From the NCBI GenBank assembly GCA_902798835.1, contig CADBYN010000002.1:1-50651 (forward strand): a DNA stretch of 50,651 nt, written 5' to 3'. This document shows, piece after piece, positions 17,194 through 44,898 of this stretch. A model generated the notes under the pieces. It saw only the letters and a program-made list of their open reading frames with translations. It ran no database searches and had not been told where the DNA came from. The DNA is from Candidatus Avelusimicrobium bubulum (GTDB taxonomy: Bacteria > Elusimicrobiota > Elusimicrobia > Elusimicrobiales > Elusimicrobiaceae). Positions within the stretch are counted from its first letter, which is position 1. Each line of letters starts with the position of its first letter. A program made the position numbers and the translations under genes.

Positions 17194-18519
17194 TTAATGT
17201 TGCCAACCGTATTTTTCCTTCAACAAGAAATAATTATGCAAACTATACCAAATTTTACTGGCCCAATCATTTGTCCAACTAAGCGCAATCATTCCGTCTA
17301 TCCCATCCTCAAAGAAAGCCTGCCCTCCATGCCGGGAAACCTCAAACCCGGAAAGTGCCAAAATAATTCCTTCATATTTTCGGTTTCTAAGTTGTCTAGT
17401 TAAAAAGCGCCCGCCGCCATTTTTCATAAGGATATCAGTCAACACCATATCGTATTCGCCATAGGATCCTCTGTTTAAAAAAGCCTCCGGGTCGTCGTAA
17501 AAATCAAATGTCCACTCTCTCAATCTCGCCCGCTTTTTCATGTCTTTTACAGCGAAAATGATGTCTTTGTCATCTTGTAAAACTGCCACGCGCATCTGGT
17601 TGGGTAATGCCCCGCGGACATTTTGGAACCACGTTGTATAATCTTTCAAATTGACTTGCGGAATAGGCTGTTCAGGCTGTCCTGATTTAAGTCCAAATTC
17701 GCTTGCCTCGTACAGGTGCCCGTCTTTACGCTTTACAGGCTTTGCTGCTTCTTTTCCTATGGCTTCGTACATTCCCGTGCTAAGCATTGTATAGAACTTC
17801 TTAACATAGTGCAAATAACTAGACATATTTATTAACTGACGCTCATCCCCCCAAGTGACCCGTGCTTGGGCAACCGCACTTTGCGCCTCTGCTATATCCG
17901 TAAATATTTGACGCATGTGCTCCGGCAGCATTGCTTCTGCTTCTGCAGTTCCCAAATAATAAATATTTGCATTCAAGGTCTTTGATAACTCCCGCACGGT
18001 TTGTGCGGCATGTTGGTAGGCTTTCTTGGCCACGCTGACTTGTTCCCCACTCATTTCCGTCAAGTTTCCTCGTGTCAATATACCGGAATAAATATCCCCA
18101 TAGAAAGGCGGATCTTGAGGGAGTATCTCGCGCTCAAAGCTCTGCAAAAATGGACGCATATCCAAAGCCGCCTGCCGCCGCATTCTACGAGAAAGAGAGA
18201 GGGACACATCGCTTGTCTGATTCAAAAACTCCCTCGGCTGCTGCAAATGCCCCGTTGTGCCGAGCAAGTTAGTCGTGGCGTGCCTTGAGCCCCCACGCGA
18301 ATCGCCCATTTGTTCTCTATGTCCTCTTGCCATTTGTCGTTGGGCATAAGACATTGTTTTCTTTAATTTGGACGTCACCCGTGTGAGCTTGCCACCCGCG
18401 CGGCTCTTAGACAATTTCCCGCCGTACGCGCTGGAAAAACACGCCGCAAGCAACAAAAATAAAATTGAGCTACTGATTACGTTTCGTCGGTTTAACATAT
18501 TCTTCGTTTTCCCGCACAT
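17194..18519 (-). CDS. Exported or anchored protein with C-terminal CheY-like receiver (paralogue A)
   Basis: About 441 residues. The ATG at 18519 overlaps the upstream stop (TGATG); a later ATG at 18498 aligns better with paralogue B. The N-terminus is basic then hydrophobic (VISSSILFLLLAACFSSAYG), a signal peptide or anchor with a lipobox-like LAAC. A Lys/Arg-rich stretch and a helical middle follow. The last roughly 135 residues read as a receiver fold: RVAVLQDD (acidic pocket), YDMVLTDIL (phospho-acceptor Asp), ILALSG (the Ser/Thr position), and FFEDGIDGMIALSW where the invariant Lys should be but is not. No kinase or output domain is attached. Whether the receiver is outside or inside the membrane is unclear. 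Function unknown. Confidence 0.75.
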   Translation of the reverse strand: MCGKTKNMLNRRNVISSSILFLLLAACFSSAYGGKLSKSRAGGKLTRVTSKLKKTMSYAQRQMARGHREQMGDSRGGSRHATTNLLGTTGHLQQPREFLNQTSDVSLSLSRRMRRQAALDMRPFLQSFEREILPQDPPFYGDIYSGILTRGNLTEMSGEQVSVAKKAYQHAAQTVRELSKTLNANIYYLGTAEAEAMLPEHMRQIFTDIAEAQSAVAQARVTWGDERQLINMSSYLHYVKKFYTMLSTGMYEAIGKEAAKPVKRKDGHLYEASEFGLKSGQPEQPIPQVNLKDYTTWFQNVRGALPNQMRVAVLQDDKDIIFAVKDMKKRARLREWTFDFYDDPEAFLNRGSYGEYDMVLTDILMKNGGGRFLTRQLRNRKYEGIILALSGFEVSRHGGQAFFEDGIDGMIALSWTNDWASKIWYSLHNYFLLKEKYGWQH

Positions 18520-19892
18520 CAATGTTTCCAACCATATTTTTCTTTAAGGAGGAAATAACTATTCAGCCGCCGCCAAATCAAATCTGATAAATCGGACGTC
18601 CAACCTATGCTAATCATTGCGTCTATGCCATCGTTAAAAAATTCTTCTCCGCCATGCGTTACTTCAAAGCCGGACAACGTCAAAATACTTCCTTCATATC
18701 CTCTGTTTCGCAGTTGACGCGCCAAATAACGGCCGCCCCCATTTCTAATCAATACATCGGTCAAAATCATATCATATTTTTCGTAAGAAACTTGATTTAA
18801 AAAAGCTTCCGGGTCATCATAAAAATCTAACGTCCAACCTTTTAATCCCGCTCTTTTACGCATCATTTTTAGACCGTTAATCACCTTAGGATCATCTTGT
18901 AAGATAGCCACCCGTAGATGAGTGGGAATCGTTCCCGATATATTCAATCCCAACCAAGCGGAGGGATCCCGCCAATCTGGCTCAGGAAGTGGCACGTCTG
19001 TTATAGTAGATAATAGTCCAAACTCTTCGGCGATGTATGCATGTCCGTCTGATCGTTTGACAGTTTTTAATTTCTCCTTTCCTGCAGGAAGGATCCCCGT
19101 ACCTAGCGCATTATAAACTTCTTGCATGCGTTCCCAGTAAATTGCTATCCGCACCAAAGTGTAATTATCGCCCCAAATTGCACGAGCATCTTTCACCAAA
19201 CTTTGTCCTTTAGAAATTTCACTAAGCCGCTGACGTATTTGCTCGGGTAGGAACGCTTCCCCTTCGGAAGTACCCAAATAATAAATCTCCGCGTTAATAG
19301 ATTTAGAAACTTCTTGCATATACGTTACAGCTTGCTCAAATGCTTTCTTGCCCGCTGCATATTGTTCCTCGCTCATTCTTGTCAAATTTCCCAAGGTGTC
19401 CACCCCTCGCTGCACAACAGAGTAAGAAGCGGGTTGCTGCGGCATTCTGACCCAATCCAATTCATCCAAATAGGCCCGCGCTTCCAAGGCCATCTTTCGT
19501 TGCATAGTGCGAGATAATGTATTTCTTGTTAAAAATGAATAATCCACCACTTGTGGCTTTTCGGATACCAAAAGTCTCCTTTCCATAGCAAGGGATAATT
19601 GCTGATCCCTAAGATTTTTAGTGGCTTTGACGGAGATACTCCGTGCCTTCCGTTTTTTTGAAAAAGGGATCCGCTCCTTAGAAGAAACCGTTGAAGACAA
19701 CTCGGATGTTGCGCGAAGTGCATCCAATTTATCATTTCTAGATCTCCGGCGTAAAATTCGTTTCACACTTTGGTTTATTGTCGTAAATATTTTCCCCCTA
19801 CGACGCAGCTTTGGAGATCCCCCCCCATACACGGTAGAGAAACATAATAAACCCAACAAAGAAATTTCAGCTATTTTCTTTATATTTTTCAT
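18519..19892 (-). CDS. Exported or anchored protein with C-terminal CheY-like receiver (paralogue B)
   Basis: 457 residues, clearly homologous to its downstream neighbour along the full length. The N-terminus MKNIKKIAEISLLGLLCFST is a signal peptide or anchor ending VYGGG, followed by very basic segments (KLRRRGK, RRRSR). The helical middle contains ISKGQSLVKDARAIWGDNYT and the shared motif NAEIYYLGTSEGEAFLPEQI. The C-terminal receiver has LRVAILQDD, YDMILTDVL, LTLSG and DGIDAMISIGW, again lacking the conserved Lys. Both copies end in YFLLKEKYGW-H. It is first in a two-gene operon. No relative of known function comes to mind. Confidence 0.75.
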   Translation of the reverse strand: MKNIKKIAEISLLGLLCFSTVYGGGSPKLRRRGKIFTTINQSVKRILRRRSRNDKLDALRATSELSSTVSSKERIPFSKKRKARSISVKATKNLRDQQLSLAMERRLLVSEKPQVVDYSFLTRNTLSRTMQRKMALEARAYLDELDWVRMPQQPASYSVVQRGVDTLGNLTRMSEEQYAAGKKAFEQAVTYMQEVSKSINAEIYYLGTSEGEAFLPEQIRQRLSEISKGQSLVKDARAIWGDNYTLVRIAIYWERMQEVYNALGTGILPAGKEKLKTVKRSDGHAYIAEEFGLLSTITDVPLPEPDWRDPSAWLGLNISGTIPTHLRVAILQDDPKVINGLKMMRKRAGLKGWTLDFYDDPEAFLNQVSYEKYDMILTDVLIRNGGGRYLARQLRNRGYEGSILTLSGFEVTHGGEEFFNDGIDAMISIGWTSDLSDLIWRRLNSYFLLKEKYGWKH

Positions 19893-20917: not shown

Positions 20918-21595
20918 CTATTTCCACCTAATACCCCAATGTTTAGACCACAATTCCGCCTCTAACAACGTTTGTTCGATAACCTCTTGTTCGTATAGCG
21001 GAAGGCCTAATTCTTTATTCTTTTCATTCAACCTTTTATAGAAGTTGGTAATTATTCCCCATACGCCCTTTTGGTGATATGTTTCGAGCAATGCGGCATG
21101 ATCGTGGAATAAATCGCTATACATAACATTTCCATGTAAAGCACTATACACCGCGGGAGCATTTGCTTTCATCTCCTTGGTATCTTTAATGTCCATCTCT
21201 TTGGCAATCTCATCGATTACGGTCTGCGTGACGATATGATGCACCCCGTTATAAAGACCGCTGTCTGTTACCCCTCTCCATTGAGGCGTAGAATCCCTAA
21301 ATTTTTTATTTACAGTTCGCAGATAATTATATCCGCCCGTTAATTTTGTAGGATGCACAATCGGTTGTTTGATTTCGGCCGTTATAATGACTCGGGTAAC
21401 ATTTGTATTTATCTTGGGTTGGCGGAACAAAGTTCGCTTGGAAAGCATCCGTTCTGCCACGCGCACATGTACCGGATGCACCGTAATAGTTCTTTGCACG
21501 CGCACACCTTTCCGGTTCGTTTTTACAATCTGATAGAGACTTTGTGAATAAGAGGTTACAGGCAGGAGTAGACACAGTATCGCCACTATGCGCAT
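20918..21595 (-). CDS. Secreted protein of unknown function, His-rich core
   Basis: 225 residues with a signal peptide (MRIVAILCLLLPVTSYSQSL). A basic region follows, then a His-containing core: GLYNGVHHIVTQTVIDEI, YSALHGNVMYSDLFHDHAAL and WGIITNFYKRLNEK. The spacing of HH, HG and HDH hints at a metal-dependent nuclease or toxin-like domain, but I cannot place it in a family and would not name it. The start has AAGGAGAG just upstream, inside the end of a possible 46-codon ORF. It stands alone on the minus strand between the tRNA and a divergent pilin. Confidence 0.6.
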   Translation of the reverse strand: MRIVAILCLLLPVTSYSQSLYQIVKTNRKGVRVQRTITVHPVHVRVAERMLSKRTLFRQPKINTNVTRVIITAEIKQPIVHPTKLTGGYNYLRTVNKKFRDSTPQWRGVTDSGLYNGVHHIVTQTVIDEIAKEMDIKDTKEMKANAPAVYSALHGNVMYSDLFHDHAALLETYHQKGVWGIITNFYKRLNEKNKELGLPLYEQEVIEQTLLEAELWSKHWGIRWK

Positions 21596-44532: not shown

Positions 44533-44898
44533 CTAGATTTTTAAAATTTTCTTAATTTCCGCCAACGTGGACGGCAAATCATACGGTTTGGGAATAAAAT
44601 AATCCGCCCCTGCCTCCGTGGCTCGCTCGCGCGACTCGGGATCGGTAAGAGTGGACATAATCACTATCGGAATACGCCACGTGGCGTTATCCGTCTTTAA
44701 CAGTTTGCACACATCAAAGCCGCTTATTTTAGGAAGCATCAAATCCAGCAAAATAAGGTCCGGCTTTTGTTGTTTGGCAAGGGATACCCCCAGGGCTCCG
44801 TTTATCGCCCAATGTGCTTCGATTCCTTCCACTTTAAGCGCCCCTACTAAAGCTGTGCCTAATACCTTTGAATCTTCAATCAGAACAATCTTTTTCAT
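44533..44898 (-). CDS. Stand-alone CheY-like response regulator receiver
   Basis: 121 residues, a single receiver domain with all key residues: Glu8-Asp9 acidic pocket (VLIEDS), phospho-acceptor Asp52 (LILLDLMLPKISG), the Ser/Thr switch (IVIMSTL) and Lys in YFIPKPYDLP. No output domain. It is phosphorylated by an unseen histidine kinase. It overlaps the gamma-carbonic-anhydrase-like gene by four bases and is followed by the TPR gene. It is a useful standard against which the two Lys-less receivers at 17-20 kb stand out. Confidence 0.93.
   Translation of the reverse strand: MKKIVLIEDSKVLGTALVGALKVEGIEAHWAINGALGVSLAKQQKPDLILLDLMLPKISGFDVCKLLKTDNATWRIPIVIMSTLTDPESRERATEAGADYFIPKPYDLPSTLAEIKKILKI

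What the first reader, a model, noticed from the sequence alone, without database searches (positions are those of the whole stretch)
17194..19892. Tandem exported or anchored proteins with a Lys-less CheY-like receiver at the C-terminus
Two paralogues share a signal peptide/anchor, a basic segment, a helical domain with NAEIYYLGTSEGEAFLPEQI (copy B) and a C-terminal receiver with the DD pocket, phospho-acceptor Asp and Ser/Thr but no conserved Lys. Receivers are normally cytoplasmic and need the Lys for switching. Either these are extracytoplasmic pseudo-receivers, or the positive-inside rule (heavy Lys/Arg after the hydrophobic segment) keeps the C-terminus inside with the helix as anchor. 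I know of no described family with this layout.
Basis: partly seen in the sequence, partly recalled or inferred. Interest (0 to 1): 0.72.

Follow-up and report, generated by a model that had tools for sequence, protein, structure and literature searches.

The report
Exported, Lys-less receiver-domain protein family
Two neighbouring genes of a gut Elusimicrobiales bacterium encode proteins that carry an export signal and end in a domain folded like the receivers of bacterial signalling proteins; they belong to a family of at least 94 such proteins, although receivers normally work only inside the cell and this one has lost residues needed for its usual phosphate switch.

Summary
Window 17194-19892(-) holds two tandem paralogues (A 457 aa, B 434-441 aa). 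Each has a signal peptide, a basic disordered linker, a helical domain and a C-terminal domain that matches Pfam Response_reg and folds as a five-strand receiver (Foldseek TM about 0.8 to PhoP, RstA and others). One correction: there is no canonical DD pair. The first acidic position is Gln here (Asn in 81/94 relatives). The second acidic residue (93/94), the phospho-acceptor Asp (94/94) and Ser/Thr (88/94) are kept; the switch Lys survives in 1/94. All seven ordinary receivers of the same genome keep the full set. This is therefore a pseudo-receiver by the published definition.

Export rather than an inside-facing anchor is supported by conserved signal-peptidase sites (AxA|Q), a short hydrophobic core, no later membrane segment in A or B, and sevenfold Cys depletion. 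The full module was found only in one genus; a divergent version occurs in a sister genus. It stands alone in arrays of up to five genes, or as the removable C-terminus of giant proteins with caspase-like domains (HtrA-like in the sister genus).

Best reading: an extracytoplasmic, phosphorylation-independent binding module. The ligand is unknown. No described family matched in the literature searched.

The parts
18519..19892 (-). Gene A: 457-aa exported helical + pseudo-receiver protein
   Evidence: ORF; Response_reg 328-427 E 3e-7; AlphaFold2 model
19821..19892 (-). A residues 1-24: signal peptide MKNIKKIAEISLLGLLCFSTVYGG, cleavage predicted near VYG|GG
   Evidence: heuristic scan; orthologues show AYA|G or AYG|G at the same place
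19518..19820 (-). A residues 25-125: basic, mostly low-confidence linker, the fastest-changing part
   Evidence: pLDDT below 50 at 23-34, 62-89, 114-122; 29% identity to the orthologue against 73% in the receiver
19008..19517 (-). A residues 126-295: helical domain (helices 175-206, 216-240, 244-265) with the YYLG motif; part of the conserved module
18522..18923 (-). A residues 324-457: pseudo-receiver; DD1=Gln332, DD2=Asp333, D=Asp379, T=Ser407, K position=Ile429
18522..18533 (-). A C-terminal GWKH, an instance of the conserved W-x-[R/H/Y]-COOH end
   Evidence: 74 of 94 members end in W-x-[RHY]
17194..18519 (-). Gene B: second copy; ATG at 18519 overlaps A's stop (TGATG), alternative ATG at 18498
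   Evidence: 49% identical to A
18421..18498 (-). B signal peptide (MLNRRNVISSSILFLLLAACFSSAYG), with an embedded lipobox-like LAAC
   Evidence: sequence. Type I or II cleavage not decided
17197..17598 (-). B pseudo-receiver: DD1=Gln, DD2=Asp, D=Asp, T=Ser, K position=Leu; ends GWQH
   Evidence: E 8e-6, 26.4 bits, cut-off 30.2

Best explanation
A and B are two members of a lineage-specific family of exported proteins. A Sec-type signal peptide takes them across the inner membrane and is cleaved, leaving a flexible basic linker, a helical domain and a C-terminal pseudo-receiver outside the cytoplasm. The receiver no longer works as a phosphorylation switch, because the switch Lys and DD1 are gone and the compartment has no known ATP-dependent histidine kinase activity. 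The fold and the Asp pair DD2/D, which in ordinary receivers hold a divalent cation, are retained. I infer that the helical domain and pseudo-receiver form one binding module that docks onto a partner in the periplasm or on the cell surface, with a metal ion stabilising the pocket. Gene duplication then varied its specificity, and fusion placed it at the C-terminus of giant proteins with signal peptides and peptidase-like domains. Shown (computationally): the fold, pocket residues, family, arrays and fusions. Strongly supported: export. Inferred: loss of phosphorylation, metal binding, and the docking role.
For: Fold: Pfam, AlphaFold2, Foldseek to RstA, BfmR, ArlR and PhoP with TMt about 0.75-0.82, and a profile search of PDB sequences matching many receivers. 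Pocket over 94 members: D 94/94, DD2 93/94, DD1 Asn 81 and Gln 6 with none acidic, Ser/Thr 88/94, Lys 1/94. All seven ordinary receivers in the same genome keep DD or ED, D, S/T and K. Export: a signal plus small-x-small|Q site by one regular expression in 63 of 85 small members against 15 of 210 other ORFs; mature Cys 0.24% against 1.66%; no membrane segment after the signal in A or B. Module: helical domain and receiver are matched together in genus g1. It forms the C-terminus of g1 giants whose relatives in G001, G034, G023 and G025 end just before it. Purifying selection on the receiver. Conserved C-terminal W-x-[R/H/Y] in 74/94.
Against: No biochemical data. The invariant phospho-acceptor Asp together with Ser/Thr could mean that some phospho-chemistry remains. 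One member keeps an SKP at the Lys position (L036). The basic residues just after the signal are unfavourable for Sec export and stronger in A and B than the family mean of +2.6. The signal prediction is a heuristic, not SignalP. The Cys control ORFs include some spurious frames. No partner gene is shared by all arrays.
Confidence: 0.62

Rival explanations
1. Membrane-anchored cytoplasmic pseudo-receiver: the N-terminal helix stays as an anchor and the strongly basic stretch after it keeps the C-terminus inside, where the pseudo-receiver competes with or scaffolds ordinary two-component proteins.
For: A and B have +5 and +7 net charge in the 20 residues after the signal. Studied receivers are cytoplasmic (established knowledge). 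Seven ordinary receivers exist in the genome, so there is a two-component network to join.
Against: The n-region is also basic; the hydrophobic core is signal-length; cleavage sites are conserved through a divergent family; Cys is depleted; a nearby protein with a signal-like N-terminus (window 20918-21595) has the same basic start.
Confidence: 0.12
2. Exported protein whose pocket still does phospho-chemistry outside the cytoplasm, or is phosphorylated before export and acts as a stored state.
For: Phospho-acceptor Asp 94/94, DD2 93/94, S/T 88/94. The Pro at D+4 and Gly at D+8 of ordinary receivers are also kept in many members.
Against: Lys lost in 93/94 and DD1 never acidic; Sec substrates are exported unfolded and no extracytoplasmic phosphodonor for receivers is known (established knowledge).
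Confidence: 0.06
3. The Asp residues are kept only to stabilise the fold; the module is a spacer or sorting tag, with the conserved W-x-[R/H] end as the functional signal for secretion or surface attachment.
For: 74/94 members, g1 giants included, end in W-x-[R/H/Y]-COOH. The module is a clean C-terminal add-on in giants. Stand-alone copies have no recognised catalytic domain.
Against: Stand-alone copies have little else to sort; a whole two-domain module is conserved and the receiver is under purifying selection; 20 members, among them the g12 giants, lack the W-x-[R/H/Y] end.
Confidence: 0.15

Closest known systems
Response_reg receiver domain (PF00072; CheY, PhoP, RstA)
   Same: Five-strand receiver fold, phospho-acceptor Asp, second acidic residue and Ser/Thr in place
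   Different: Exported, at the C-terminus behind a helical domain, DD1 Gln/Asn, no Lys
Bacterial pseudo-receivers (Bourret et al. 2025, PMC12632262)
   Same: Lacks two of the five defining residues (DD1 and K)
   Different: In that survey about 80% of DD2 and only about 20% of DD1 residues are non-acidic; this family shows the opposite pattern and keeps the Asp in all members. The words periplasm, signal peptide and extracellular do not occur in the main text of that paper
Aspartate-less receivers (ALR; PMC4395418)
   Same: Non-canonical receivers
   Different: ALRs lack the phospho-acceptor Asp; here it is invariant. Signal peptide, periplasm and secreted do not occur in that paper's main text
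Clan CD caspase-like peptidases (NCBIfam NF047832; legumain/MALT1 fold)
   Same: Domains of this type precede the same module in giant relatives with signal peptides
   Different: The window proteins themselves have no such domain

Membership tests
Response_reg (PF00072) fold family | Curated Pfam score | tested here: met
   A 31 bits against 30.2; B 26.4, below the cut-off on its own
Response_reg (PF00072) fold family | (beta-alpha)5 receiver fold | tested here: met
Functional phosphorylatable receiver | Two acidic residues DD1 and DD2 | tested here: not met
   DD1 Gln in A and B, never acidic in 94 members
Functional phosphorylatable receiver | Phospho-acceptor Asp and Ser/Thr | tested here: met
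   D 94/94, S/T 88/94
Functional phosphorylatable receiver | Conserved Lys at the end of beta 5 | tested here: not met
   1/94; all seven ordinary receivers of the genome keep it
Functional phosphorylatable receiver | Cytoplasmic, phosphorylated by a histidine kinase | not testable with these tools
   sequence argues for export; no biochemistry
Pseudo-receiver (PMC12632262 definition) | Identified as a receiver but lacks any of the five residues | tested here: met
Aspartate-less receiver (ALR) | No phospho-acceptor Asp | tested here: not met
   Asp379, 94/94
Sec-exported, signal-peptidase-cleaved protein | n/h/c-region signal with a small-x-small site | tested here: met
   heuristic and family conservation; no dedicated predictor available
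Lipoprotein | Lipobox Cys | tested here: inconclusive
   B has LAAC; A and the orthologues do not show a clear lipobox

The most novel reading that the evidence does not exclude
The first receiver-domain family that works outside the cytoplasm: the phosphorylation pocket has been converted into a divalent-metal (perhaps calcium) site in an exported adaptor module, which is deployed as duplicated stand-alone copies and as the C-terminal targeting or regulatory unit of giant exported proteins with peptidase-like domains, with the W-x-[R/H]-COOH end as the recognised tip.
Probability: 0.22. Interest if true: 0.8.

Novelty: new variant of a known kind. Interest (0 to 1): 0.6.

Why it matters
Receiver domains are among the most abundant bacterial domains and are described as cytoplasmic phospho-switches. 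A family of at least 94 members with export signals, an invariant phospho-acceptor Asp but almost no switch Lys, and a pocket pattern opposite to surveyed pseudo-receivers, offers a natural case for asking what the receiver fold does without phosphorylation. How bacterial pseudo-receivers are activated is called a mystery in a 2025 article (PMC12632262). In this genome 3 of the 10 receiver-like domains found are of the exported kind.

Tried and rejected
Conserved partner gene: none is shared across arrays; recurring neighbours (an integral-membrane protein family, [FeFe]-hydrogenase-like subunits, pilins) fit local synteny (the hydrogenase and membrane-protein names are from my reading of the sequences). 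A partnership of small proteins with giants was considered and set aside, because in the genomes sampled the giant is mostly the only match. PDB sequence search for the giant's peptidase region: no hit, although its model resembles legumain/MALT1 weakly. Literature searches for exported, periplasmic or secreted receivers: 0 papers for the exact phrases, nothing relevant for the others. One regular expression for AxA|Q sites was too strict and was replaced. G209:C1:1-10 (L105) was a mistyped region of no use.

Full report
What is there. Two minus-strand genes lie head to tail at 19892-18519 (A) and 18519/18498-17194 (B). B's upstream ATG overlaps A's stop (TGATG), which suggests translational coupling. 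Both encode a signal peptide, a basic linker, a helical domain and a C-terminal receiver-like domain. A scores above Pfam's cut-off for Response_reg, B just below. No Pfam or NCBIfam model covers the remainder.

Structure. AlphaFold2 with a 48-row family alignment gave mean pLDDT 78. The receiver (326-453) and the main helical part (175-265) are mostly above 90, and the region after the signal (about 20-125) is largely low. The strand order is that of a receiver. Of the 50 Foldseek rows shown, 49 are receiver or response-regulator structures (TMt up to 0.82); the other is a high-rmsd match to a membrane receptor.

Pocket. Across 94 relatives the phospho-acceptor Asp is invariant, the second acidic residue is kept in 93, and Ser/Thr in 88. 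The first acidic position is Asn (81) or Gln (6) and never acidic. Lys is kept once. A PF00072 search of the same genome finds ten receiver-like domains: seven with strong scores and the three exported ones. All seven strong ones carry DD or ED, Asp, Ser/Thr and Lys. By the published definition the exported ones are pseudo-receivers (PMC12632262), but with a pattern opposite to that survey, where DD2 is usually the lost one.

Side of the membrane. By one regular expression, 63 of 85 small members show a signal with a small-x-small|Q site, against 15 of 210 other ORFs from the same stretches. A, B and their orthologues have AYA/AYG/VYG|G instead. Mature parts contain 0.24% Cys against 1.66% in other ORFs of at least 300 aa; A has none after its signal. 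A and B have no later membrane-like segment. The basic residues after the signal are the main counter-argument; a neighbouring gene with a signal-like N-terminus, window 20918-21595, shows the same (+5). For the giants, weak hydrophobic stretches around residues 290-570 leave the side of the C-terminus less certain (and sequence).

Family and context. The full module was found in genus g1 only: 39 genomes of that genus had matches (one of them weak) in a phylum-wide sample of 295, with arrays of up to five genes. A divergent, partial match occurs in 2.35-kaa proteins of a sister genus (g12) in the same family. Most remaining listed hits in the phylum cover the receiver only. A genome-contig scan named the close relatives as uncultured Elusimicrobiales or unnamed bacteria. 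Phyla outside Elusimicrobiota were covered only by that pattern-based scan, so absence there is not proven. The window pair groups with pairs from G009 and G261 (support 1.0). The receiver evolves slowly (73% identity to the orthologue) and the linker fast (29%).

Giants. In several g1 genomes the module ends a protein of about 1.8-2.2 kaa with a signal peptide and one or two caspase-like domains (HG ... NGCFSG or NACFSG). This rests on an NCBIfam match (E 8e-7 and 2e-7, below cut-off) and a modest Foldseek resemblance to legumain and MALT1 (best E 1.4e-3, probability up to 0.99, low TM). Catalytic residues are not intact in all copies. Homologous giants in G001, G034, G023 and G025 stop just before the module. 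The g12 giants instead match HtrA/MarP-type protease models, below cut-off. The module is thus a separable C-terminal unit.

C-terminus. 74 of 94 members end in W-x-[R/H/Y]-COOH, g1 giants included. This fixed end is unexplained; it may cap the last helix or be a recognition tip.

How it probably works. Export places the domain where no histidine kinase or acetyl phosphate is known to act, and the loss of Lys and DD1 agrees with an abandoned switch. What selection keeps, the fold, DD2 and D, is what binds a divalent cation in ordinary receivers. I therefore favour a metal-stabilised extracytoplasmic docking module. Its ligand is unknown and the metal is inferred.

Known or new. I found no description of exported receivers in the library searched, which covers open-licence papers only. 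I rate it a new variant of the pseudo-receiver kind.

Noticed in passing
L046:7832-14338(-), L047:3554-10045(+), L048:1755-7358(+), L098:4193-9652(+): Giant proteins with signal peptides and caspase-like (clan CD) domains ahead of the same module; versions without the module in L149, L150, L152 and (partial) L151.
   Followed up: partly
L094:9110-16165(-), L095:2005-9078(+): 2.35-kaa proteins of a sister genus; L094 matches HtrA/MarP-type serine protease models (below cut-off), and both carry a divergent pseudo-receiver near the C-terminus.
   Followed up: partly
L036:9281-10444(-): The only one of 94 members with Lys (SKP) at the canonical position; a natural control for testing residual phospho-chemistry.
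   Followed up: no
C-terminus of 74/94 family members: Strictly placed W-x-[R/H/Y]-COOH ending, function unknown.
   Followed up: partly
window 20918-21595(-): Small protein with a signal-like N-terminus and a very basic start, and an HHIVTQ motif that recalls HNH-type nucleases from memory; no significant Pfam match.
   Followed up: no
window 44533-44898(-): 121-aa single-domain canonical receiver (ED, D, S/T, K kept); useful cytoplasmic control.
   Followed up: partly
L036:8085-11763, L037:7811-11478, L040:7951-13561: In one clade the arrays sit between an integral-membrane protein gene and a cluster that looks like [FeFe]-hydrogenase subunits; read as synteny.
   Followed up: no
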